Shown here piece by piece: positions 6,861 to 34,640 of a stretch of DNA of 64,000 nucleotides. Each line of letters starts with the position of its first letter. Position 1 is the first letter of the stretch. A model generated the notes under the pieces. The model was not told where the DNA came from and did no database searches. It saw only the letters and a list, made by a program, of their open reading frames with translations. The DNA comes from Robertkochia solimangrovi (lineage in GTDB: Bacteria; Bacteroidota; Bacteroidia; Flavobacteriales; Flavobacteriaceae), in contig NZ_QKWN01000007.1 of assembly GCF_007279655.1 (NCBI RefSeq), positions 186,001 to 250,000 on the forward strand, given 5' to 3'. The position numbers and the translations under genes are program-made.

Positions 6861-7637
6861 ATGAAGAAACCATTGATCCTGGTTACCAACGATGATGGAA
6901 TAACTGCTCCGGGAATCAGAGCACTCATAGAAGTGATGAATACGATCGGAGATGTTGTGGTGGTGGCCCCGGATAAACCTCAAAGTGGAATGGGACATGC
7001 GATCACGGTAAATTCAACATTGTTCTGCAATCCCATCCGATTAGATCCCGAACATCCCCAAAAGGAATATAGTTGTACAGGGACCCCTGCCGATTGTGTT
7101 AAACTTGCTGTCAGGGAGATCCTGCATCGCACCCCTGACATCTGTGTCAGTGGCATCAATCATGGTTCCAATTCCTCGATTAACGTGATCTATTCCGGAA
7201 CGATGAGTGCAGCTGTTGAAGCCGGAATCGAAGGTATTCCTGCCATTGGATTTTCTTTATGCGATTATTCCTGGGATGCTGATTTTGAACCGATAAAAAA
7301 GCACGTAAAATCCATTACCGAACAAGCGCTGGTGCACGGCATGCCAAAAGGCGTAGTACTAAACGTTAATTTCCCGAAATTACCGGCAGAGGCGATAAAA
7401 GGCGTAAAAGTTTGCCGACAGGCCAAAGCAAACTGGGTAGAGGAATTTGACAAACGCACGAATCCGATGGGTAAGGATTATTACTGGCTTTCCGGTAAAT
7501 TTGTAAATCTGGACAAAGGAGAAGACACCGATGAATGGGCATTGGCAAACGGCTATGCTTCGTTGGTTCCCGTTCAATTCGACCTGACCGCTCATCATTG
7601 TATACAAGACCTAAACACTTGGGATTTTAATGACTAA
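6861..7637 (+). CDS. surE: 5'/3'-nucleotidase SurE
   Basis: A divalent-metal nucleotidase that dephosphorylates nucleoside monophosphates in the cytosol. The N-terminal NDDG motif (after ILVT) carries the metal-binding aspartates, and the SGINHGSN motif is the second SurE signature. I choose ATG 6861 (about 258 residues), because SurE normally begins a few residues before ILVTNDDG. An in-frame ATG at 6816 would add 15 atypical residues and lies upstream of a -7-like TATTTTAG at 6833-6840. The stop overlaps the next gene by 8 nt, and lpxB follows, so surE, the small membrane gene and lpxB are probably co-transcribed. Confidence 0.93.
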   Translation: MKKPLILVTNDDGITAPGIRALIEVMNTIGDVVVVAPDKPQSGMGHAITVNSTLFCNPIRLDPEHPQKEYSCTGTPADCVKLAVREILHRTPDICVSGINHGSNSSINVIYSGTMSAAVEAGIEGIPAIGFSLCDYSWDADFEPIKKHVKSITEQALVHGMPKGVVLNVNFPKLPAEAIKGVKVCRQAKANWVEEFDKRTNPMGKDYYWLSGKFVNLDKGEDTDEWALANGYASLVPVQFDLTAHHCIQDLNTWDFND

Positions 7638-7911
7638 GAAAGAAATATTTATTGGATTTGCAGTAGGAATTATTGCTAACATTCTAGGCACGCTTGCCTA
7701 TATTCTTATATTCTCTGAATACAAGATCGACGAAACCCTGAAGATCGCCAGAGAAGAAGGACATCTCGGAAGTCTGCTTGCTTTAGGAGCATTGTTAAAT
7801 CTTATAGCATTTTTCGGGTTTCTAAAGATCAAAAGAGATAACCGGGCTAAAGGTGTGCTTATCGCTACAATGCTGTGTGCCATCTTCATCCTGATTCTGA
7901 AAATTTTCTGA
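7630..7911 (+). CDS. Small membrane protein of unknown function
   Basis: A 93-residue hydrophobic protein with about three predicted membrane segments (residues 7-28, 46-64 and 74-92) separated by short charged loops. I do not recognise a family. The start overlaps the surE stop by 8 nt and lpxB begins 10 nt after its stop, which argues that it is translated. Its place between surE and lpxB suggests an envelope-related role, but that is only context. Confidence 0.75.
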   Translation: MTKKEIFIGFAVGIIANILGTLAYILIFSEYKIDETLKIAREEGHLGSLLALGALLNLIAFFGFLKIKRDNRAKGVLIATMLCAIFILILKIF

Positions 7912-7921
7912 TGCATCGATT

Positions 7922-9037
7922 ATGAAGTACTATATTATCGCCGGTGAAGCTTCCGGAGACCTGCATGGCTCCAACCTGATTAAAGGACTGAAAAAAGCAG
8001 ACCCGGATGCAGCGATTCGATGCTGGGGTGGAGATTTGATGGAAGCCGCAGGGGGAACTTTGGTTAAACATTACAAAGAACAATCGTTCATGGGCTTCTT
8101 CGAAGTAATCATGAACCTCAATAAAATCTTCAGCAATATAAAATTATGCAAGAAGGACATCGCCGCCTATAAACCGGATGTGATCATATTCATCGATTAT
8201 TCAGGTTTTAATCTGAGAATCGCAAAATGGGCAAAACCGCTGGGATATCGTACCTTCTATTATATCTCACCTCAGGTTTGGGCTTCGAGAGAAAGTCGGA
8301 TGAAAGCGATCAAAAGAGATATTGATGAAATTTTTGTCATACTTCCCTTTGAAAAAGACTTCTATGAAAAGAAACATAATTTCCCGGTTAATTTTGTAGG
8401 CCATCCACTTTTAGATGCTATTTCGGAAAAACCGGCAGTAGATCCTGAATTTTTTAGAAAGGAATTCAAACTGGATGACCGGCCTGTGATCGCACTTTTA
8501 CCGGGAAGCCGTAAACAAGAGATCACCAATATGCTGGAGGTGATGATAAACATTACTCCCGAATTCACAAAGGAATACCAGTTCGTTATCGCCGGAGCAC
8601 CCAGTCAGGATTTTGCGTTCTATGAGCAATTCCTGAAAGACACTCCAATTGCCTTTGTAAACAACCGAACCTATGACCTGCTGAACATTTCAACAGCAGC
8701 TCTGGTTACCAGTGGTACCGCCACTTTGGAAACAGCGCTTTTAAAAGTACCCGAGGTCGTTTGTTATAAAGGCAACTGGATCAGCTATCAAATCGCTAAA
8801 AGGATCATCACTCTTAAATTTATTTCCCTGGTAAATCTTATCATGGACCGGGAGGTGGTAAAGGAACTGATTCAGGACGAATTCAATGAAAAAAATCTTA
8901 AGAACGAACTCAGAAAGATTCTGGACCCTAAAGTGCGGGAGCGAATATTTGCAGACTACTACGAATTGGAACAAAGACTCGGTGGAAAAGGGGCAAGTGA
9001 GGCTGCTGCCAAGCTCATTTTCGAAAAAATTTCTTAA
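7922..9037 (+). CDS. lpxB: Lipid-A-disaccharide synthase LpxB
   Basis: A 371-residue GT19 glycosyltransferase that joins lipid X and UDP-2,3-diacylglucosamine into the lipid A disaccharide at the inner membrane. The N terminus has the characteristic GEASGDLHG motif. The middle contains YYISPQVWASRESR and LPGSRKQEI, and the C-terminal part has SGTATLE followed by a membrane-associating basic region, all typical of LpxB. Length is normal. It is the third gene of the surE cluster and shows that the organism makes lipid A, which matches lptC at 25 kb. Confidence 0.96.
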   Translation: MKYYIIAGEASGDLHGSNLIKGLKKADPDAAIRCWGGDLMEAAGGTLVKHYKEQSFMGFFEVIMNLNKIFSNIKLCKKDIAAYKPDVIIFIDYSGFNLRIAKWAKPLGYRTFYYISPQVWASRESRMKAIKRDIDEIFVILPFEKDFYEKKHNFPVNFVGHPLLDAISEKPAVDPEFFRKEFKLDDRPVIALLPGSRKQEITNMLEVMINITPEFTKEYQFVIAGAPSQDFAFYEQFLKDTPIAFVNNRTYDLLNISTAALVTSGTATLETALLKVPEVVCYKGNWISYQIAKRIITLKFISLVNLIMDREVVKELIQDEFNEKNLKNELRKILDPKVRERIFADYYELEQRLGGKGASEAAAKLIFEKIS

Positions 9038-9060
9038 TTTGGGGAAACCCTAAATTTTAG

Positions 9061-9618
9061 ATGAAGCGAATAATTTACATTTCAATGGCCGCTGCCTTTA
9101 TGATCTCCTGTAAATCATCAAAGCATGCAGCGTCCGACAGTAATAATCCCGGCTCGGTAACAGTTAAACACGGGAATGAACTCTCTACGGCTCTTCCTCC
9201 GGGAAATCTCCCTGAAGTCAAATCCCCTTCTGATCAACTTGCCGACAAGATTGTTCGCACAGCGCTCGGCTTCAGTGGGACCCGTTACCGGTATGGAGGA
9301 ACTACGAAAAAGGGAATGGATTGTTCCGGACTTGTCTATGTATCTTTTGGTGACAACGAGATCAGCATGGAACGTAGCTCTTCTCAAATGGCAACGCAGG
9401 GTGACGAAATTCCACTTCGAAAAGTAAAAAAAGGGGATCTTCTATTCTTCACCACCGGAAATAATAAAAGACGTATCAATCATGTCGGGCTGGTAGTATC
9501 CGTCGATGGTGATGATATACAATTCATTCACTCTACTACTTCCCGTGGCGTTTTGGTTTCTTCCTTGAGTGAAGGATATTGGAATTACGCATTTAATCAG
9601 GCCAGAAGAATTTTGTAG
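9061..9618 (+). CDS. NlpC/P60 (C40) cell-wall peptidase lipoprotein
   Basis: A 185-residue putative lipoprotein: hydrophobic signal and lipobox FMIS-Cys17, a ~45-residue linker, then an NlpC/P60 domain from ~residue 60. The catalytic triad is visible as Cys88 (GMDCSG), His141 (NHVGLVVS) and His157 (FIHSTTS). Family members cleave gamma-D-Glu-diamino acid bonds in peptidoglycan stem peptides (E. coli Spr/MepS type). It starts 23 nt after lpxB on the same strand. Which crosslink or stem peptide it cuts cannot be told from sequence. Confidence 0.92.
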   Translation: MKRIIYISMAAAFMISCKSSKHAASDSNNPGSVTVKHGNELSTALPPGNLPEVKSPSDQLADKIVRTALGFSGTRYRYGGTTKKGMDCSGLVYVSFGDNEISMERSSSQMATQGDEIPLRKVKKGDLLFFTTGNNKRRINHVGLVVSVDGDDIQFIHSTTSRGVLVSSLSEGYWNYAFNQARRIL

Positions 9619-9644
9619 AATATTTTCTATATTTAGTAGTTTCT

Positions 9645-11669
9645 ATGTGGAGACTACTGAACATAGCACTTTTAAAATGCACCTGCTTTCTTGCGATCGG
9701 GATTATATTCGGGTACTACCTGAATAATACCTCATACTCGCTTATCTTAGCACTGATCGCCACCCTGTCACTGATACTTTATCGCCTGTATTCAAGATCT
9801 GAACGGTGTTTCAGGATTTGCAGTGAATTTTTGATCGCCTGTATATTCATACTTTTTGGCTTCCTCAACATTCAGTTCCGTCATCACGATCGCAATCTGG
9901 CCTGGCAGTATTATGAGAACCCCGAATCAAAAGATTTAACGATACGGGTTACTAAAATCCTTAGGGAAACAAACTTTTCTTTCCGATATACCGGGGTGAT
10001 CCTTGCCGTTGATTGCCAAAAGGAATATATCCCGGTACTCATCCGAATTCCAAAAGACAGTATCTTCTCAAAGAGTCTGGAGCCTGGCGATGAACTAGTC
10101 ACCTCCATTCCGATAAAATCGATCCCACCACCCTTAAATCCCTACGCATTCAATTATCGAAAATACATGGCGTCGGAGCATATATTCTTTCAGGTAAGCA
10201 TAGACCCGGCATTACTCAAGGTCAGAACACCATCTGACAAATCTCCCGCTATTCTGGCCTACAAATTTCGTAAAAACATACAAAGTCAATTTGAAAGAAA
10301 TAATCTGAAGGAAAAGAATATCGCCTTACTTTGCGCTATACTACTCGGACAACGACAATACCTGGATCATACTACCTACAAACAATTCACCGATTCCGGT
10401 GCCGCACACTTTCTTGCCGTTTCCGGGCTGCATATCGGAATACTCCTTAGCGTTTTCAGCTTCCTTTTAAAGCCTTTAAACTATATCCAAAAAGGGAGAA
10501 CGCTACGCTTTCTCCTATTGATAACTTTCCTGTTGCTTTATGCCTTTATTACCGGGCTGTCCCCCTCCGTATTAAGAGCGATACTCATGTATGGTTTACT
10601 TACCTATGCACTACTCCTACAACGCAAAAACCCACCGATAAACACGCTCATTCTGTCTGCTTTTATCTTGCTTCTAGCTGAGCCAATAGAACTTTTCAGT
10701 GTGGGTTTCCAGTTAAGTTATCTCGCTGTTGGTGGAATCCTATTATTCTTCCCGCTATTGAATAAACTATGGACTGGACAACACTTTATATTTAAATATT
10801 TCTGGCAGCTTTGTATGATTTCTATCGCAGCACAAATCATGGTTACCCCTCTTATTCTATATTATTTCCACCAATTCCCCTTCCATTTTTTACTCACCAG
10901 TATGATCGTTACGCCCCTACTGGCATTGATACTCACTTATACAGTTATCCTTCTGGCCACATCTTGCCTTTTGGAATTACCACGGTTTCTATACGCATTC
11001 CTGGATAATCTACTAAGTGTGATCGATCTCATCACTCGCATCGGCGCTTCGTCTGAATCCCTGATCATAAAAAATATACAGCTGTCACTCCCGTCACTAC
11101 TGATCCTGTACTTCATCATTTCAACAACGCTGTATTGGATCACCCAAAGGAGAACAAGTCTGATGCTACTTCCCGTTTCCGGTCTCCTGCTATTGATGGT
11201 ACAATTTCTCTTTCATCCCTTTGCTCCTAAAACCAAAGATCATCTTCTGGTACTTCACAAAACAGCACAAAGCATGATTATCGGGATCAACAAGAGCCAT
11301 TTAATCCTTGAACATGACGATGAAAGAAACGAAACCATTATTATGGATCTTTATAACGGATTGCAACTGGATTCAATCGTAGTCTCAAAAGATAATATAA
11401 AAAGTATGCAGCAAAGATCCGGGTTGGTCATCATCGACAGCACTTTTCAAACCATAAGTTATCGTAAAGACAGTGTTTCCATCCTTTTGAGAAATTCAAC
11501 CGGAGTTCATCTGGAACGTTTACTGGATTCAACACCTGTTCGAAAGGTGATCGCAGATGGCAGCAACTACCTTTCATACATCCGACGATGGCGTGTAACC
11601 TGTTTCAAACGAAAGATCCCTTTTCACTACACTGGTGAAAAGGGATCATTTCGAATATATTTTGAATAA
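9645..11669 (+). CDS. comEC: ComEC/Rec2-family DNA-uptake channel protein
   Basis: A 674-residue polytopic protein. Two N-terminal helices precede a DUF4131-like soluble region (residues ~60-200). The competence domain follows, with the conserved HFLAVSGLHIGIL and ITGLSPSVLRA segments and about eight membrane helices to ~residue 530. The last ~140 residues lie where longer ComEC proteins carry a metallo-beta-lactamase nuclease domain, but no HxHxDH motif is seen. ComEC forms the inner-membrane pore for single-stranded DNA in natural transformation. The stop lies 8 nt from the convergent transporter stop. A 13-bp hairpin sits inside the 3' end of the gene. Confidence 0.9.
   Translation: MWRLLNIALLKCTCFLAIGIIFGYYLNNTSYSLILALIATLSLILYRLYSRSERCFRICSEFLIACIFILFGFLNIQFRHHDRNLAWQYYENPESKDLTIRVTKILRETNFSFRYTGVILAVDCQKEYIPVLIRIPKDSIFSKSLEPGDELVTSIPIKSIPPPLNPYAFNYRKYMASEHIFFQVSIDPALLKVRTPSDKSPAILAYKFRKNIQSQFERNNLKEKNIALLCAILLGQRQYLDHTTYKQFTDSGAAHFLAVSGLHIGILLSVFSFLLKPLNYIQKGRTLRFLLLITFLLLYAFITGLSPSVLRAILMYGLLTYALLLQRKNPPINTLILSAFILLLAEPIELFSVGFQLSYLAVGGILLFFPLLNKLWTGQHFIFKYFWQLCMISIAAQIMVTPLILYYFHQFPFHFLLTSMIVTPLLALILTYTVILLATSCLLELPRFLYAFLDNLLSVIDLITRIGASSESLIIKNIQLSLPSLLILYFIISTTLYWITQRRTSLMLLPVSGLLLLMVQFLFHPFAPKTKDHLLVLHKTAQSMIIGINKSHLILEHDDERNETIIMDLYNGLQLDSIVVSKDNIKSMQQRSGLVIIDSTFQTISYRKDSVSILLRNSTGVHLERLLDSTPVRKVIADGSNYLSYIRRWRVTCFKRKIPFHYTGEKGSFRIYFE
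11615..11647. terminator. Strong hairpin embedded in the 3' end of comEC
   Basis: The arms GATCCCTTTTCAC (11615-11627) and GTGAAAAGGGATC (11635-11647) form a perfect 13-bp stem with a 7-nt loop, all inside the last ~20 codons of comEC. comEC and the convergent POT gene are separated by only 8 nt, so there is no room for an intergenic terminator. This hairpin may serve both genes, although the U-tract is weak. Confidence 0.5.
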
Positions 11670-29134: not shown

Positions 29135-29164
29135 TTGCAAATATTAAATTTGAACCTATATTTG
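29135..29164 (+). promoter_or_regulatory. Promoter of tRNA-Phe
   Basis: TTG at 29135-29137 (inside TTTTTG), a 19-bp spacer, and TATATTTG at 29157-29164 match the Bacteroidota consensus exactly. The tRNA begins 32 nt after the -7 box. Confidence 0.85.
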
Positions 29165-29196: not shown

Positions 29197-29272
29197 GGTG
29201 CCTTAGCTCAGTTGGTAGAGCAAAGGACTGAAAATCCTTGTGTCCCTGGTTCGATTCCTGGAGGCACCACCA
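29197..29272 (+). tRNA. tRNA-Phe (anticodon GAA)
   Basis: A 76-nt cloverleaf with encoded CCA. The acceptor GGTGCCT pairs with AGGCACC, the D-arm is GCTC...GAGC, the anticodon loop CTGAAAA carries GAA between AAGGA and TCCTT, and the T-arm is CCTGG-TTCGATT-CCTGG. The discriminator is A at 29269 and CCA is 29270-29272. The 3' end is copied ~0.7 kb downstream around a small nuclease cassette. Confidence 0.97.
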
Positions 29273-29321
29273 TCAAAAGCCCGAACAGCAATGTTCGGGC
29301 TTTTTGGTTTTATAATATTTG
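29258..29321 (+). repeat. tRNA-Phe 3' end plus terminator, repeat copy 1
   Basis: 64 bp covering the last bases of the tRNA, CCA, the terminator and the trailing ATAATATTTG. It is identical to 29967-30030. Ten further matching bases lie upstream (29243-29252 versus 29941-29950), interrupted by a 5-nt versus 16-nt difference. Confidence 0.95.
29275..29305 (+). terminator. Terminator of tRNA-Phe
   Basis: AAAAGCCCGAACA, a GCAA tetraloop, then TGTTCGGGCTTTTT: a 13-bp stem with a T-tract starting 2 nt after the CCA end. A perfect second copy is at 29984-30014. Confidence 0.93.
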
Positions 29322-29357
29322 TATCCATGGTTCCCCCGATGCTTCGGGGCTGGAGGC
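29315..29357 (+). repeat. Palindrome-bearing repeat, copy 1
   Basis: 43 bp starting ATATTTG and ending GGAGGC, with the hairpin CCCCGA-TGCT-TCGGGG at 29334-29349. It matches 29932-29974 at 41 of 43 positions and overlaps the tail of the 64-bp repeat. Confidence 0.9.
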
Positions 29358-29551
29358 GTCGATTTGAAATTCATTTCAACTACAACCAAAATTAAAGAAT
29401 AAATATGTTTCAGATAAAATACGCTTAAAAGCCCCCAAATTTTTATTCTAAGGGTCATTTAAACAGGAAAAATCCTAAGCAATCCAAAAATCCTTCTAGT
29501 ATAACTTTTGACATCTATCTTATGTAACAATAAAAATCTAAGTTATAAGAC
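29358..29551 (+). other. AT-rich leader of the GIY-YIG gene
   Basis: About 190 bases between the first palindrome copy and the nuclease start, clearly AT-richer than the surrounding genes. No gene was found. The sequence TAACTTTTG near 29502 is a loose promoter-like match only. Confidence 0.4.
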
Positions 29552-29821
29552 ATGTATCTATATATTATTTACAGTAATAAAGTTGACAAATTCTATGTTG
29601 GAATCACTAAGAATCTTGAAACAAGATTAGCTAAACATAATTTAGCAATTTACAAAGGCAGCTTTACCAAAATTGCAAATGACTGGAAATATGTTCTGCA
29701 GTATAAGTGTAAAACAAAGAAGCATGCAAATGATATAGAAAAATTTATAAAGAGAATGAAAAGCAGAAAATTCATATCTAAAATTATAAATGACCCAAGT
29801 ATTCTCAAAACACTTCATTAA
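29552..29821 (+). CDS. GIY-YIG nuclease-domain protein
   Basis: An 89-residue single-domain protein of the UvrC N-terminal/YhbQ type. The GIY-YIG signature appears as YLYIIYSN...FYVGITKN near residues 2-21. The conserved Arg follows in LETRLAKHN and the metal-binding Glu in DIEKFIKRMKS. Such small proteins are frequent in Bacteroidota and their substrates are generally unknown. It is AT-rich compared with neighbours and stands alone between two copies of the tRNA-Phe 3' end, which suggests that it belongs to a mobile or formerly mobile cassette. A DNA-repair role is the alternative. Confidence 0.87.
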   Translation: MYLYIIYSNKVDKFYVGITKNLETRLAKHNLAIYKGSFTKIANDWKYVLQYKCKTKKHANDIEKFIKRMKSRKFISKIINDPSILKTLH

Positions 29822-29931
29822 TAAATATACTCCTACCAGTCAATTCCATGATTTATTATTCAATACTCTAACCTAGAAGATTTTGCAAAAATTCAGAATA
29901 TTTTCCAATTCGGACTCAATAAAGCTCATAG

Positions 29932-29974
29932 ATATTTGCATCCCTGGTTCCCCCGATGCTTCGGGGCTGGAGGC
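29932..29974 (+). repeat. Palindrome-bearing repeat, copy 2
   Basis: Second copy of the 43-bp repeat (2 mismatches to 29315-29357), with hairpin CCCCGA-TGCT-TCGGGG at 29951-29966. Here it runs directly into the 64-bp tRNA 3'-end copy. Confidence 0.9.
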
Positions 29975-30030
29975 ACCACCATCAAAAGCCCGAACAGCAA
30001 TGTTCGGGCTTTTTGGTTTTATAATATTTG
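29967..30030 (+). repeat. tRNA-Phe 3' end plus terminator, repeat copy 2
   Basis: Perfect 64-bp copy of 29258-29321, including AGGCACCACCA and the terminator hairpin (29984-30014). The T-loop bases GATTC of the real tRNA are replaced by the 16-bp palindrome, so this copy cannot form a functional T-arm. Confidence 0.95.
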
Positions 30031-30597
30031 GAAAACGGAAAACAGAAAACGGAAAACGGAAAACAGCCTTCAGCTTTCTGCATACTGCCTATTGCATACT
30101 GATTCACTACATACTACTTCACTACATACTGCCTCACAACTTCACAAGTAACTGGTAACTGGTAACAAAAAAAAACCTGCCGTTGCCGACAGGTTCCCGA
30201 TTTAAAAAACGAATTGAAAAGTAATATCCCTGGTAACTAAACTTCCGGATATTATCTTTCTTCTTTTCTTACAAATACAAAAAACTAAGGGGAGTTTATC
30301 ATGGATCTCCTGGCCATTTTACCGAGAACAGCTCTATTCCCCTTCTCAAATGTATAACAACTTCCACATTGAGTTCAAGCCTCTTTCATTCCTTAACGTT
30401 TATTTATCGTTGGCTTTCATTTCTCATTACATTGCTTTAACATGACCCTGTTTCAGTCTACAATTTGGTAATATTACCCAGACAGCGATAATGGTGATAA
30501 TAGTGACAATGGTGATAATAGTGATATTGGTAGGACTGGTCGTATTCAGGTCACAGAATTTGTGATAAAAGGATAGTAGCAAAATATTTAAAAACAG
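30031..30597. other. Repeat-rich non-coding DNA between the tRNA cassette and the usp genes
   Basis: No credible gene. From the left: a run of GGAAAAC-like heptamers (about 30030-30065); short echoes such as CACTACATACT and AACTGGT; an imperfect A9-preceded hairpin AACCTGCCG-TTG-CCGACAGGTT near 30174-30194, which would act on minus-strand transcripts; plain sequence to ~30480; then a 9-bp tandem repeat. Short frames crossing this area are made of the repeats. Confidence 0.55.
30485..30529. repeat. Five tandem copies of a 9-bp unit (GTGATAATG-like)
   Basis: Units start at 30485, 30494, 30503, 30512 and 30521: GCGATAATG, GTGATAATA, GTGACAATG, GTGATAATA, GTGATATTG. Spacing is exact. No open frame of note covers it. 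Confidence 0.85.
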
Positions 30598-30682: not shown

Positions 30683-31522
30683 TTACAATACCAGCAGCGG
30701 CACTTTGGAATGATAACTCAATCCTTTAAGTGTAGATTTTTGTAGCATTTTCTCAAAAAAGCTATGTTGTCTGTTCACCAGTGCGATCATATCCACTCCG
30801 GTATCCTTTACAAACTTCTGAATAGCCTCTTCAGCATCATCATCTTCATCCGCTAATGTATATACCGCGATCTTTACATATTTGATAGCATCCAATATCT
30901 CTTCTTTAATCGATTGTTGTTTTTCCGTGAGCTCATCACCATCGGTTACATGCAACAATGAAATATCACTGTTACATTGTACTGCTATCTTATTGAGTAG
31001 CTCCATATGTCCGACGGGTACTTTCTCCTTATAGGTCACGGCAAGAGCGATCTCGCCGGGGTACTTAATTTCGCTGTGCTCAGGAATGATCAGCATCGGC
31101 ACCCCACCAACCTGGTCGAGCACATGAACCGTATTACTTCCTACCCAAACTTCACGACTTCCTGAAGATCCTTTGGTTCCCATAACCACCAGATCATAGT
31201 TACCGCTCTTCAACTGTGATTCGATCTCATCGGACAGATAATTATATTTACTCACCGTTTTAAATTGATGATGATGATTCTTGTTCGAAGCGATCAGATC
31301 CTGTCTTAGTGTTTTCAATTCGATCTCTGAATCTTTGGAAGCTTTTTCAACTTCAGCATCGCCTACCTGCCAGACAAGGGTCTGTGGCGACTTCATCCCA
31401 TCAGCACCAAAGGTGTGAAGCAATGTTAATTCACAGGATTCGTCATCGAACAATTTCAAAGCGAAATCAATCGCATGCCGTGCATTCTGCGAGAAATCAG
31501 TCGGTATTAATATTCTTTTCAT
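30683..31522 (-). CDS. Universal stress protein, tandem UspA domains (usp-1)
   Basis: A ~279-residue protein beginning MKRILIPTDFSQNARHAIDFA, which is the canonical first strand and helix of a Usp fold, so ATG 31522 is chosen over an in-frame start 37 codons upstream that overlaps the previous gene. The first domain has the nucleotide-loop-like VVMGTKGSSGSREVWVGSNT. The second (from ~150) is diverged and lacks a clear GxxG(9x)G(S/T) motif. Such double-Usp proteins are common in flavobacteria and are usually starvation- or stress-induced. It is the third gene of a usp tandem array. Confidence 0.9.
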   Translation of the reverse strand: MKRILIPTDFSQNARHAIDFALKLFDDESCELTLLHTFGADGMKSPQTLVWQVGDAEVEKASKDSEIELKTLRQDLIASNKNHHHQFKTVSKYNYLSDEIESQLKSGNYDLVVMGTKGSSGSREVWVGSNTVHVLDQVGGVPMLIIPEHSEIKYPGEIALAVTYKEKVPVGHMELLNKIAVQCNSDISLLHVTDGDELTEKQQSIKEEILDAIKYVKIAVYTLADEDDDAEEAIQKFVKDTGVDMIALVNRQHSFFEKMLQKSTLKGLSYHSKVPLLVL

Positions 31523-31625
31523 ATTTGTATTGTATTGACTTTCTTTTAGCCTGATAAAACTCCAGCAAAGGCCGGTCTTTAAGCCACCTTTAGCAAAACA
31601 AGTTTCATCTTTCTGCAAATTCAGG

Positions 31626-32474
31626 TCATTCAACTTCTGGCATTACCAGAAAAGGTACTTCTACATGAAAGGCCACCTGTTTTACTACAGGCTCCCGGAA
31701 GAGTCCATCCATAAAACTATGGTGATTATTGATCATACAAAGCATGCCCAACTTTTCATTTTCCAGATATTCCTGAATTGTTTCTGCTACTGAAAAATCC
31801 TTTTTTAGAACGATCTCAGATACTTTCACTCCTTCCAAAAGCCGGAATAGTTCAGTTTTATTCTTTAACTGGATTTCAGATAGTTCTTCACTTCCTTCCA
31901 GATAAAGAATCACAACCTCAGCACCTATTAGTTTGGCTATATTTTTTAACGGCCCAACCTCTTCCGGTTCGAAGTTTCTTTTGAAATCATTAGCAAAAAG
32001 AATCTTTTCAGGATTCTTGAATTTATAATTATCCGGTACTGCAAGCACCGGTGTATATTTTAAAGCCTTGATAACATCCACCGTATTACTCCCCAAAAAT
32101 ATCTCTGCCGCTCCGGTAGCCCCTTTCGTACCCATAACCACATAATCTGCTTTCATTTCTTTTGCAGCTTTATACATAGAAGATGAGATCGTCTCGTCGG
32201 TAGTGAAACCGCGAATTTTATGTTCCTCACCGATATGCTCTTCCCTGAGTTTTACCAGCAATGATTTCATCTCTTCTTTAGCCTTCTCCTCTGCAAGATG
32301 GTACACACGGGTATTTTTTTCCTTCTTTCGGGTACTGCTTAACGAAGAGGTACTTACATTGAAAGAATGGATAATGTCAAATTCACAGGATTCCCCTTCA
32401 AACATCTTAATGGCATAATGCAATGCATTCAATGAATTTTCAGAAAAATCCGTGGGCAACAAAACTTTGTTCAT
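31626..32474 (-). CDS. Universal stress protein, tandem UspA domains (usp-2)
   Basis: A 282-residue protein starting MNKVLLPTDFSENSLNALHYAI. The first Usp domain contains VVMGTKGATGAAEIFLGSNT, matching the ATP-binding GxxGxxx-type loop. The second domain is diverged. It follows usp-3 by 9 nt and precedes usp-1 by 103 nt, so the three are probably one transcript. The differing second domains suggest that the copies have separated functionally; ligands cannot be inferred. Confidence 0.91.
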   Translation of the reverse strand: MNKVLLPTDFSENSLNALHYAIKMFEGESCEFDIIHSFNVSTSSLSSTRKKEKNTRVYHLAEEKAKEEMKSLLVKLREEHIGEEHKIRGFTTDETISSSMYKAAKEMKADYVVMGTKGATGAAEIFLGSNTVDVIKALKYTPVLAVPDNYKFKNPEKILFANDFKRNFEPEEVGPLKNIAKLIGAEVVILYLEGSEELSEIQLKNKTELFRLLEGVKVSEIVLKKDFSVAETIQEYLENEKLGMLCMINNHHSFMDGLFREPVVKQVAFHVEVPFLVMPEVE

Positions 32475-32483
32475 CTGTATAAT

Positions 32484-33329
32484 CTATTTTAATTTCTCTC
32501 TTAAAACCAGAAACGGAATCTTGATCTCAAATCCTACACTATCAACATTCTGCCGTAACAGTAATCGCTCCATGAACGAATGTTTCCTGTTCATCATCAC
32601 CAGCAAATCAAAATCTTCCTTCTCTGTATATGCCTTAATCGCATCAGGCGGATATTCATTGTCCAACAAAGCGAAGGAGTAAGGAACTCCCTGAAACGCA
32701 TCTTCAAGAAACTTCTTATTAGACTCCTGCTCTTCTGAAAGGATATGTCCCTCATCGACATGAACTACCTGCACTTCAGCACCGTGAAGTCGGCAAAGAT
32801 CCAGAAGTTCCCCGAGTTCTTCCTTTTCATAATGCTTCAGGTAATCTGTCGGAAACAAAACCCTGTCAAGGGATTTAAAAGTGTAACCTTCAGGGATAGC
32901 CAAAACAGGGATTCTGGCGGTACGCATAACAAAAACCGTATTGCTTCCCAACAACACCTGCATTACCCCACTGGCACCTTTGGTTCCCATAATGATCATA
33001 TCGATGGACTGCTCAGAAGCGTACTCCCTGATCTCATCCGTCAATTGATTAAAGGCATAATGTGTATGAAATTTATGCTTAGGGTTATTAAATTTCTCAT
33101 GTATTCTTTCTAATGTATGTTCCAGCCCAGAAATAGTAGCCTGAATCATCGCATCATCGATACCTGAATAGGCAGGACCTCCCAAGGCATAATCAACGCG
33201 ATAAAAAGCCGGCACATAAGTATGCAGGATATAGAACTCGCAGGGGACATCGCTGAACATATCTATGGCATAAGAGATCGCATTCCAAGCGTTCTCTGAA
33301 AAGTCGGTGGGTAAAAGAACTTTTTTCAT
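32484..33329 (-). CDS. Universal stress protein, tandem UspA domains (usp-3)
   Basis: Starting at ATG 33329 the protein (~281 residues) reads MKKVLLPTDFSENAWNAISYA, a standard Usp beginning; one extra Met lies directly upstream at 33332. The first domain carries IIMGTKGASGVMQVLLGSNT. The second half resembles usp-1 and usp-2 and ends with the shared pattern LLVMMNRKHSFMERLL, seen as MIALVNRQHSFFEKML in usp-1. A TATATTTG box 63 nt upstream fits a promoter for the three-gene array. Confidence 0.9.
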   Translation of the reverse strand: MKKVLLPTDFSENAWNAISYAIDMFSDVPCEFYILHTYVPAFYRVDYALGGPAYSGIDDAMIQATISGLEHTLERIHEKFNNPKHKFHTHYAFNQLTDEIREYASEQSIDMIIMGTKGASGVMQVLLGSNTVFVMRTARIPVLAIPEGYTFKSLDRVLFPTDYLKHYEKEELGELLDLCRLHGAEVQVVHVDEGHILSEEQESNKKFLEDAFQGVPYSFALLDNEYPPDAIKAYTEKEDFDLLVMMNRKHSFMERLLLRQNVDSVGFEIKIPFLVLREKLK

Positions 33330-33391
33330 CATCTGATTTTTAAATGAACCCTTTTCCCGACACTCCCCCACTTGTGTAAGGTGATTCTACT

Positions 33392-33399
33392 CAAATATA
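33392..33399 (-). promoter_or_regulatory. -7 promoter box of the usp array
   Basis: CAAATATA on the plus strand is TATATTTG on the minus strand, a perfect -7 box 63 nt upstream of ATG 33329. No TTG at the usual 17-23 bp distance; one lies at 24 bp. Confidence 0.55.
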
Positions 33400-33448
33400 G
33401 CAAATCCTTAGCAACTTATTTGCCAATCATCTGTTAATCATAATTGAG

Positions 33449-33479
33449 TTGACTAATGCCGGACTCTTTCGTAAATTTA
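33449..33479 (+). promoter_or_regulatory. Candidate promoter of the thioredoxin gene
   Basis: TTG at 33449-33451, 20 bp, then TAAATTTA at 33472-33479 (last base A instead of G). It lies inside the upstream extension of the thioredoxin frame and therefore supports ATG 33498 as the start. Confidence 0.5.
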
Positions 33480-33497
33480 CCGGTATATAAAGCCGTC

Positions 33498-33797
33498 ATG
33501 AAAAGTAATTTTAACAATATCATCGCCTCTAAAACCCCGGTTCTCGTTGATTTTCACGCAGACTGGTGTGGTCCTTGTAAAATGCTTGCTCCAATTCTTA
33601 AGGAGGTCAAGGCAGAGCTGGGAGATTCTATCAAGATCGTTAAGATCGATGTTGACCGAAATCAGGAACTCTCGGGTAAGTTTCAGGTTCGTGGGGTTCC
33701 CACACTGATCCTTTTCAAAGAGGGTGTCCCGGTATGGCGACAGTCCGGAGTAGTTTCCAAACCGGATCTTATCAACATCCTTCGAAATTACAACTGA
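33498..33797 (+). CDS. trxA: Thioredoxin
   Basis: A ~99-residue thioredoxin with the active site WCGPCK (Cys24 and Cys27 counted from ATG 33498) and the cis-proline loop RGVPTLILF. It reduces cytosolic protein disulfides; no signal peptide is present when started here. An upstream ATG at 33456 would add 14 residues across a likely promoter, so it is rejected. The gene is embedded among usp genes, read in the opposite direction, and its stop touches that of usp-4 with no spacer. This suggests a shared stress role without being in one transcript. Confidence 0.93.
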   Translation: MKSNFNNIIASKTPVLVDFHADWCGPCKMLAPILKEVKAELGDSIKIVKIDVDRNQELSGKFQVRGVPTLILFKEGVPVWRQSGVVSKPDLINILRNYN

Positions 33798-34640
33798 TCA
33801 ATCCTGAATCTTAAATGTTATCACCGGAAGGGTGGCATGATTTGCCACGTCTTCTCCTATACTTCCCATAAAGAAATGAGATATACCTTTGCGACCATGG
33901 GTCGGTAATGAAATTATATCTGCATCAACCTTCTTACAAAATTCATAGATACCATTCTCGATGGTATAATCACAATAGTAATGAACCAGTTCTTTGTTAT
34001 CCAAAGAACCATTATCAGCCTCCATCAGGAAATTATCAACCCGTTCTTCCATTTCAAAAGAACTCAGGAAATTCTGATTTGGAACATTGATATATACCAG
34101 ATATACCTGGCTTCTCAACATACTGAAGAACTTCATCGCTTTGCGGTAAACCCCTATATTCTCAAATTTAAAATCACAAGCCAGTACCACAGAATCTGTT
34201 TTAAATTCCTGGTGTTCCTTTTTGATCACCAAAACCGGAATATCTGAATTCCTGACCACCTTTTCCGTATTGGAACCCACAAAGAAATCGTTGATGAACC
34301 CGGTTCCATGTGAACCCATTACGATGAGATCTATTCCCTTTTCCTTTGCCACTTCATTCACCTCAGAAAAGATCTTATAGTTCTGCACGATCTCCTCTAC
34401 TTCGATTCCCTGCATTTTTTCACTATTGATCATCTCCTGAAATTTCGCTTTCACTCCCTGAAGATAATAGATGGATTCTGCACCTGAATTATGATCTCCC
34501 TTGCCGATCACAGCCTGAGAGATTCCCATCATATGCAATAAATAAATTTTAGCTCCGTGAGTTCTGGCCAACTGAATTGCAACATCCAGTGCATGACCGG
34601 CAAACTCAGAAAAGTCAGTGGGTACCAGTATCTTTTTCAT
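33798..34640 (-). CDS. Universal stress protein, tandem UspA domains (usp-4)
   Basis: A 280-residue protein with two Usp domains. It starts MKKILVPTDFSEFAGHALDVA. Domain 1 carries IVMGSHGTGFINDFFVGSNTEKV; domain 2 ends with IISLPTHGRKGISHFFMGSIGEDV, so here both halves keep a recognisable GxxG...GS(N/I) nucleotide loop, unlike usp-1 to usp-3. This suggests that it is the least diverged copy. It is separated from the array by trxA and convergent with it. cbpM-cbpA lie upstream on the same strand after a 111-nt gap. Confidence 0.93.
   Translation of the reverse strand: MKKILVPTDFSEFAGHALDVAIQLARTHGAKIYLLHMMGISQAVIGKGDHNSGAESIYYLQGVKAKFQEMINSEKMQGIEVEEIVQNYKIFSEVNEVAKEKGIDLIVMGSHGTGFINDFFVGSNTEKVVRNSDIPVLVIKKEHQEFKTDSVVLACDFKFENIGVYRKAMKFFSMLRSQVYLVYINVPNQNFLSSFEMEERVDNFLMEADNGSLDNKELVHYYCDYTIENGIYEFCKKVDADIISLPTHGRKGISHFFMGSIGEDVANHATLPVITFKIQD

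What the first reader, a model, noticed from the sequence alone, without database searches (positions are those of the whole stretch)
29197..30030. tRNA-Phe 3' end duplicated around a GIY-YIG cassette and a palindrome
The last part of tRNA-Phe and its terminator (29258-29321) recur perfectly at 29967-30030, 709 bp away. A further 10 bp of the T-arm (29243-29252) recur at 29941-29950. Between these two matching blocks the real tRNA has 5 nt (GATTC) while the second copy has a 16-bp palindrome CCCCGATGCTTCGGGG. A 43-bp block with the same palindrome also sits directly after copy 1 (41 of 43 identical). The interval encodes one 89-residue GIY-YIG protein and is AT-rich. This looks like a minimal element that inserts at tRNA 3' ends and carries a replacement 3' end with terminator, without an integrase. 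The GIY-YIG protein could be the homing nuclease and the palindrome its cleavage or recombination site.
Basis: partly seen in the sequence, partly recalled or inferred. Interest (0 to 1): 0.75.

Follow-up and report, generated by a model that had tools for sequence, protein, structure and literature searches.

The report
Nuclease gene hopping into tRNA genes
A tiny DNA element, carrying little more than one GIY-YIG nuclease gene, sits inside a bacterial tRNA gene, leaves the tRNA intact by duplicating one end of it, and marks the displaced copy with a hairpin; relatives sit at many different tRNA genes across the phylum Bacteroidota, and I found no description of it.

Summary
In the window, tRNA-Phe and its terminator are intact. 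Downstream lie a GIY-YIG gene and a second copy of the tRNA 3' end plus terminator, with five T-loop bases replaced by a 16-nt hairpin. Three of four other genomes of the genus have the same tRNA-Phe locus with no insert. Profile searches hit 211 of 299 family genomes and 139 of 296 phylum genomes. All 91 copies with a tRNA within 1 kb lie on its strand. The GIY-YIG tree follows the tRNA occupied, not the host genome. The hairpin site is nearly fixed for each tRNA and insertion type, and its stem covaries. The duplicated tRNA end is the host's own. Copy number changes by whole units between 95%-identical relatives. A mirror-image class duplicates the tRNA 5' end. No integrase, intron, phage or plasmid link was found. 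I read it as an integrase-free mobile element. My favoured mechanism, hairpin cutting by an SLX1-like nuclease then insertion by ends-in recombination, is inference. Nearest precedents are T-even phage SegB and fungal mitochondrial mobile ORFs. No prior description was found in the open library searched.

The parts
29157..29164 (+). TATATTTG, likely -7 promoter element of tRNA-Phe
   Evidence: sequence; conserved in all five congeners; match to the flavobacterial TAnnTTTG consensus is from general knowledge
29197..29272 (+). intact tRNA-Phe (GAA)
   Evidence: ARAGORN, Rfam RF00005 E 7e-15
29258..29321 (+). copy 1 of the duplicated segment: tRNA-Phe 3' end plus terminator
   Evidence: the repeat finder D1
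29275..29304 (+). terminator hairpin, copy 1; stem and loop homologous to the native terminator of congener G002
29315..29357 (+). solo scar: T-arm fragment, hairpin, start of acceptor strand; no nuclease gene between it and copy 1
   Evidence: the repeat finder D3
29334..29349 (+). hairpin CCCCGATGCTTCGGGG in the solo scar
29552..29821 (+). GIY-YIG nuclease gene, 89 aa
   Evidence: Pfam PF01541; AlphaFold2 mean pLDDT 92.8; close relatives have dN/dS about 0.12
29941..29950 (+). core of the displaced tRNA copy: 5' side of the T-arm (tRNA positions 47-56)
29951..29966 (+). hairpin CCCCGATGCTTCGGGG replacing tRNA positions 57-61 (GATTC)
   Evidence: covariation in 38 related scars
29967..30030 (+). 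copy 2 of the duplicated segment: displaced tRNA 3' end plus terminator
   Evidence: the repeat finder D1

Best explanation
This is a tRNA-targeting GIY-YIG element: about 300-700 bp, integrase-free, one nuclease gene, occupying a tRNA gene at a loop or arm that is nearly fixed for its lineage. Shown by sequence: the unit is [tRNA 3' segment + terminator] - GIY-YIG gene - [short tRNA core - hairpin], or its mirror image at the 5' end; the host tRNA stays intact on one side, and the other side holds a displaced partial copy whose loop or arm is replaced by a GC-rich hairpin. Inferred mechanism: the nuclease, whose nearest solved relatives by sequence and fold are UPF0213, SLX1 and I-TevI, cuts at the hairpin in the displaced copy. 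That frees a unit whose two ends are the two sides of the tRNA loop. Such a fragment is an 'ends-in' recombination substrate. RecA-type repair at a tRNA gene of the same kind inserts it, rebuilds an intact tRNA, and duplicates the tRNA segment and terminator. Repeats of this give tandem arrays. Tails match the host when the move is within a genome or species; transfer from other species leaves mismatched tails.
For: Empty orthologous sites in 3 of 5 congeners. 91/91 GIY-YIG copies within 1 kb of a tRNA are on its strand; 68/68 in a second set of named genomes found by protein similarity alone; 25/26 loci mostly from other Bacteroidota families lie beside a tRNA, again same strand. Tree: 20 changes of tRNA target against 41 or more in 2000 shuffles, while host genome is no better than random. 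Hairpin site nearly fixed per tRNA and class; stem covaries, 19 double changes, no single-sided ones. Acceptor base concordant 30/30, terminators 31/36 identical within against 16/36 between genomes. Whole-unit copy-number difference between 95%-identical loci. Arrays of 3-8 units. Ectopic units beginning mid-tRNA. Purifying selection. SLX1/UPF0213/I-TevI similarity.
Against: No cleavage, excision or movement was observed. Ends-in gap repair would normally restore the loop, so retention of the hairpin needs an extra step (hairpin kept on one end). Host-matched terminators could also come from gene conversion after an old insertion. The hairpin could serve transcription, RNA stability or protection instead of being the substrate. 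Fold matches are weak (best Foldseek E 0.014). The tree rests on 85 columns.
Confidence: 0.55

Rival explanations
1. Classical free-standing homing endonuclease: the protein cuts tRNA genes lacking the element at the loop, and repair from a carrier chromosome copies the block in. The hairpin merely destroys the target in the displaced copy.
For: GIY-YIG domain with conserved catalytic residues; patchy occupancy; target-specific lineages; T-even SegB, a GIY-YIG enzyme, is implicated in cutting tRNA-containing DNA and drives tandem amplification (PMC13096335).
Against: In carriers the intact tRNA and its near flanks look like the empty allele, so a simple sequence-specific enzyme would keep cutting its own host; it does not explain why a covarying hairpin rather than any mutation is kept.
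Confidence: 0.25
2. Non-mobile, vertically inherited gene duplication with a domesticated nuclease; tandem change is ordinary unequal crossing-over between the direct repeats.
For: Strong purifying selection; congeners share the T-loop position; repeats allow unequal exchange; tails could be kept alike by gene conversion.
Against: Empty orthologous sites in the same genus and at most other tRNA-Phe loci; the window GIY is as close to Aureibaculum (62%) as to its congener (61%), while the neighbouring coaX is 51% and 62%; the tree ignores host genome.
Confidence: 0.1
3. RNA-level system: the scar is transcribed as a tRNA mimic (decoy or antitoxin) and the GIY-YIG protein acts on tRNA loops.
For: Hairpins replace tRNA loops or arms exactly, the gene is always on the tRNA strand, and the hairpin covaries as RNA would.
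Against: Many scars keep only 7-13 nt of one tRNA half and cannot fold as tRNA; some carry a further hairpin in the terminator loop; known GIY-YIG enzymes act on DNA (general knowledge); no match above noise in a defence-system library.
Confidence: 0.08
4. Integrase-made tRNA islands that shrank: a tyrosine recombinase made the duplication and the nuclease is a passenger.
For: tRNA 3' ends are classic attB sites and the duplicated segment resembles attL/attR.
Against: No unit read in full carries an integrase; units are 300-700 bp; breaks lie in D-, anticodon- or T-loops and also duplicate 5' ends; the GIY-YIG gene is the shared feature at every site.
Confidence: 0.02

Closest known systems
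SegB and other free-standing GIY-YIG homing endonucleases of T-even phages
   Same: Intron-less GIY-YIG gene beside a tRNA gene; SegB is implicated in cutting tRNA-containing DNA, and amplification joins the tRNA 5' region to the segB 3' region (PMC13096335).
   Different: Phage, not bacterial chromosomes; in the passages read no hairpin scar and no regenerated tRNA end are described; one tRNA region rather than many tRNA-specific lineages.
Mobile ORFs (mORFs) of fungal mitochondria (Allomyces atp6; Glomus atp6, atp9, cox2, nad3)
   Same: Endonuclease ORF (LAGLIDADG, GIY-YIG in atp9) inserted in a gene with a duplicate gene 3' end restoring it, the native end displaced downstream (PMC3630166).
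   Different: Protein genes in organelles; the restored end is foreign there but host-matched in most loci here; no covarying hairpin is described in the passages read; no mirror 5' class.
SLX1 / UPF0213 (YhbQ-YazA) GIY-YIG nucleases
   Same: Best sequence and fold matches; SLX1 cuts branched DNA (title of 6seh).
   Different: Cellular repair or unknown roles; not tied to tRNA genes as far as known. A UPF0213-like paralogue in congener G002 (L030) is not at a tRNA.
REP/RAYT and IS200/IS605 hairpin-ended elements
   Same: Tiny units with GC-rich hairpins near a nuclease gene.
   Different: Those use HUH Y1 transposases; none here. The tested hairpins are rare, not dispersed.
tRNA-borne integrative elements (genomic islands, tycheposons)
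   Same: tRNA gene as target, duplicated tRNA end restores the gene.
   Different: No recombinase; internal loop breakpoints; unit under 1 kb.

Membership tests
Free-standing GIY-YIG homing endonuclease gene | GIY-YIG catalytic domain with conserved Tyr, Tyr, Arg, Glu | tested here: met
   PF01541; Y4, Y15, R25, E63 invariant in 10 Phe-type relatives
Free-standing GIY-YIG homing endonuclease gene | not inside an intron or intein | tested here: met
   no intron family in Rfam scan; gene lies outside the intact tRNA
Free-standing GIY-YIG homing endonuclease gene | occupied and empty alleles of one site | tested here: met
   empty in G001-G003, filled in G000 and G004
Free-standing GIY-YIG homing endonuclease gene | cuts the empty allele and spares the carrier | not testable with these tools
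   carrier tRNA and near flank look like the empty allele, so sparing is unexplained
Fungal mitochondrial mORF | endonuclease ORF plus duplicate gene end, native end displaced | tested here: met
Fungal mitochondrial mORF | restored end is foreign | tested here: inconclusive
   host-matched in most loci, mismatched in some
Fungal mitochondrial mORF | organellar protein-coding host gene | tested here: not met
   bacterial tRNA genes
tRNA-integrating genomic island / ICE | site-specific recombinase in the element | tested here: not met
   the only ORF of 60 aa or more lying wholly between the repeats is the 89-aa GIY-YIG on the + strand
tRNA-integrating genomic island / ICE | direct repeat of the tRNA 3' end | tested here: met
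   64-bp repeat
REP/RAYT or IS200/IS605 | Y1 (HUH) transposase | tested here: not met
Mobile group I intron | intron RNA structure | tested here: not met
   NCBIfam grpIintron_endo far below cut-off (18.7 against 56 bits)

The most novel reading that the evidence does not exclude
A phylum-wide class of integrase-free mobile elements in which a structure-specific, SLX1-like GIY-YIG nuclease acts on a hairpin planted in a displaced tRNA loop, and the host's ends-in recombination does the insertion and rebuilds the tRNA. This would be a distinct way to colonise tRNA genes.
Probability: 0.35. Interest if true: 0.9.

Novelty: new variant of a known kind. Interest (0 to 1): 0.8.

Why it matters
It would add a common element, found in about half of the Bacteroidota genomes sampled and in most Flavobacteriaceae, to the tRNA-targeting mobile elements, until now mainly recombinase-driven. 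It gives naturally matched sets of nuclease lineage, tRNA target loop and hairpin, usable to study how GIY-YIG enzymes choose a site. It also explains many tRNA fragments, false tRNA-SeC calls and tRNA-linked repeats in these genomes, and gives context to many small unnamed GIY-YIG proteins.

Tried and rejected
Rfam scan: nothing but the tRNA; other hits far below gathering scores. Phage, plasmid and viral-contig searches: no relatives. Defence library: no meaningful hit. Dispersed REP-like hairpin idea: TCCCGATAGCTATCGGGA is absent or rare (0-7 places per genome) in 60 relatives, so not a dispersed repeat. Two-copy repeats D5, D6 and D8 downstream of copy 2 are simple A-rich or CATACTG-type repeats, judged unrelated.

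Full report
Observation. The window holds an intact tRNA-Phe(GAA) at 29197-29272. A perfect 64-bp direct repeat of its 3' end and terminator lies at 29258-29321 and 29967-30030. In the distal copy the T-arm decamer 29941-29950 is followed by CCCCGATGCTTCGGGG (29951-29966) where the tRNA has GATTC. A second hairpin block follows copy 1 directly (29315-29357, 41/43 identical). Between them is one 89-aa GIY-YIG ORF (29552-29821; PF01541 E 1.2e-11). The palindrome's 14-base core occurs only at these two places in the 4.4-Mb genome.

Empty sites. The genome set holds five genomes of the genus. One of them, G004, appears to be Robertkochia sp. 3YJGBD-33, because its contig has the same length (556,781 bases) and the same match position as that named record. 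All five share the tRNA-Phe locus, with the same promoter-proximal sequence and coaX upstream. G000 (window) and G004 are filled; G001, G002 and G003 have tRNA, terminator and no hairpin or GIY-YIG gene. The native terminator of G002 (CCCGAACAGCAATGTTCGGG) is the stem and loop found twice in G000, so the duplicated tail is of the host's own type. G004 differs: between its tRNA and GIY-YIG gene lies a remnant tRNA 3' end with GGCACC, whereas its own tRNA has GGTACC, and then a different terminator. I read this as a trace of foreign arrival (inference).

How common. A profile of 19 relatives hits 211 of 299 family genomes and 139 of 296 phylum genomes. In the loci read by then, 119 unique GIY-YIG copies were found; 91 have a recognisable tRNA within 1 kb and all 91 are on the same strand. 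The rest are mostly distal array members, units with only tRNA fragments, or contig ends; one (L030) is an ordinary UPF0213-like protein away from tRNAs. A further set of 78 loci from named genomes, found by Phe-type protein similarity alone, gave 68 with a tRNA in view, all on the same strand: 59 Phe, 6 Leu(UAA), 2 Cys, 1 Met; a few of these genomes overlap the first set. Of 26 further loci, mostly from other Bacteroidota families, 25 lie beside a tRNA on the same strand. At tRNA-Phe the element is rare: 1 of 69 family genomes read around that gene, and at least 7 of the 148 genomes with the pattern once known carriers are added. The 69 were not a strictly random draw, because some known carriers were skipped.

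Two mirror classes. In class D the GIY-YIG gene follows the intact tRNA and its terminator, and the scar lies beyond it: a short 5' core of mostly 7-13 nt, hairpin, tRNA 3' end, terminator. Phe, Val, Arg(UCU), most Asn and fMet-type loci are class D. In class U the gene precedes the intact tRNA and the scar lies upstream: tRNA 5' end, hairpin, short core. Arg(UCG/ACG), Pro(GGG), Asp, most Met and Leu(CAA) loci are class U; in 13 of 27 class U gene-tRNA pairs the gene's stop codon is supplied by the tRNA itself, ending at tRNA position 23. The hairpin replaces a loop or arm at a site that is nearly fixed per tRNA and class: Phe 56|62 (T-loop), Val 28|46 and Pro 28|46 (anticodon arm), Arg(UCU) 27-29|43-45, Asp 22|29, Asn 45|51 (class D) or 14|18 (class U), Arg(UCG) 22|23, Met 11|12. 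Exceptions exist, and some scars hold two hairpins or one in the terminator loop. The Phe-type clade also occupies the T-loop of Leu(UAA) in class D and of Cys in class U, so the protein lineage seems tied to the loop.

Hairpin. Across 38 distinct Phe-type scars the stem pairs in 99.6% of cells, with 19 double-sided changes (C-G to U-A) at the two outer pairs and no single-sided ones; none of 500 shuffles reached this covariation score, and slid controls are far lower. These scars were picked partly for pairing (at least four of six pairs), which raises the percentage paired but not the double changes. The structure is therefore kept, not just the letters. In the Phe-type set, 64 of 75 loci show a T-arm fragment plus hairpin automatically, and three more do by eye with degenerate sequence.

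Target tracking. On a tree of GIY-YIG proteins reduced to one per genome and target (65 tips, 14 targets, 52 genomes), target changes 20 times (minimum 13; shuffles mean 48, lowest 41 of 2000), whereas host genome is no better than random. Of 21 tips that could group either way, 16 have a same-target nearest neighbour and none a same-genome one. The alignment has only 85 columns, so deep branches are unsure. The window protein is 62% identical to that of Aureibaculum and 61% to its congener, while coaX next door is 51% and 62%.

Host-matched duplication. In 30 Phe-type loci the variable acceptor base of the scar equals that of the host tRNA every time (23 C/C, 7 T/T), and the two terminators agree at 31 of 36 positions within a genome against 16 between genomes. 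In single-unit loci identity often runs to the end of the terminator and then stops. In several arrays and a few other loci the last tail differs, as expected after arrival from elsewhere. Either insertion copies the host segment, or later gene conversion does; I cannot separate these.

Arrays and ectopic units. Arrays of 3 to 8 near-identical units are common. Two uncultured Maribacter loci, 95.5% identical over 1.8 kb, differ by exactly one unit of about 370 bp. GIY-less short units also occur (L201, L250), and the block at 29315-29357 is probably one. Some units begin mid-tRNA with no intact tRNA near them (L187-L189).

The protein. Close pairs have median dN/dS 0.12, so it is a maintained protein. 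AlphaFold2 gives a confident model (pLDDT 92.8). Nearest by sequence are UPF0213 and SLX1, and by fold UPF0213, SLX1 and I-TevI, though with weak Foldseek E-values. No NCBIfam model passes its cut-off. No relatives in phage, plasmid or viral collections.

Mechanism. The intact tRNA with its near flanks in a carrier looks like the empty allele, so a plain sequence-specific homing enzyme would cut its own host. What differs is the hairpin. I therefore favour a nuclease that acts on the hairpin-bearing scar. Cutting there frees a unit whose ends are the two sides of the tRNA loop, which is an ends-in substrate. Its repair at a matching tRNA yields the observed order: intact tRNA, tail, gene, core, scar, tail; class U is the mirror image. 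Shown: the anatomy, distribution, covariation, target tracking, empty sites and unit-number change. Inferred: cutting, excision, and RecA-type insertion. Ends-in repair would normally restore the loop, so an extra step must retain the hairpin; this is the weakest link.

Known relatives. SegB of T-even phages is a GIY-YIG enzyme implicated in cutting tRNA-containing DNA; it drives tandem amplification joining the tRNA 5' region and the segB 3' region (PMC13096335). Fungal mitochondrial mORFs carry an endonuclease and a duplicate gene 3' end (PMC3630166). Both share logic with this element. Neither is described, in the passages read, with tRNA loop specificity, covarying hairpin scars or mirror classes. 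Eight full-text searches of the open library found no description of the bacterial family; most subscription papers and preprints were not covered.

Noticed in passing
G000:C17:24602-24838 (L196:4600-4848): A second GIY-YIG element in the same genome, class U at tRNA-Leu(CAA), with CTGTC..GACAG-type hairpins.
   Followed up: partly
L187 (G185:C34), 6985-9784: Eight tandem GIY-YIG units with initiator-tRNA-like fragments and no intact tRNA within the 15 kb fetched.
   Followed up: partly
L203, L208, L204, L261: Second hairpin planted in the loop or stem of the displaced terminator, so loop-directed hairpin insertion is not limited to tRNA.
   Followed up: partly
L010, L014, L020, L021: ARAGORN calls tRNA-SeC on scars whose anticodon arm is replaced by a hairpin; such scars may pollute tRNA annotation.
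   Followed up: no
window 30683-34640: Four Usp-like genes on the minus strand, with a thioredoxin-like ORF on the plus strand among them (only one was tested by Pfam).
   Followed up: no
window 30030-30160 and 30484-30528: Short simple repeats (GGAAAACGGAAAACAG, CATACTGCCT-like, and a 9-mer tandem like GATAATGGT) after copy 2.
   Followed up: no
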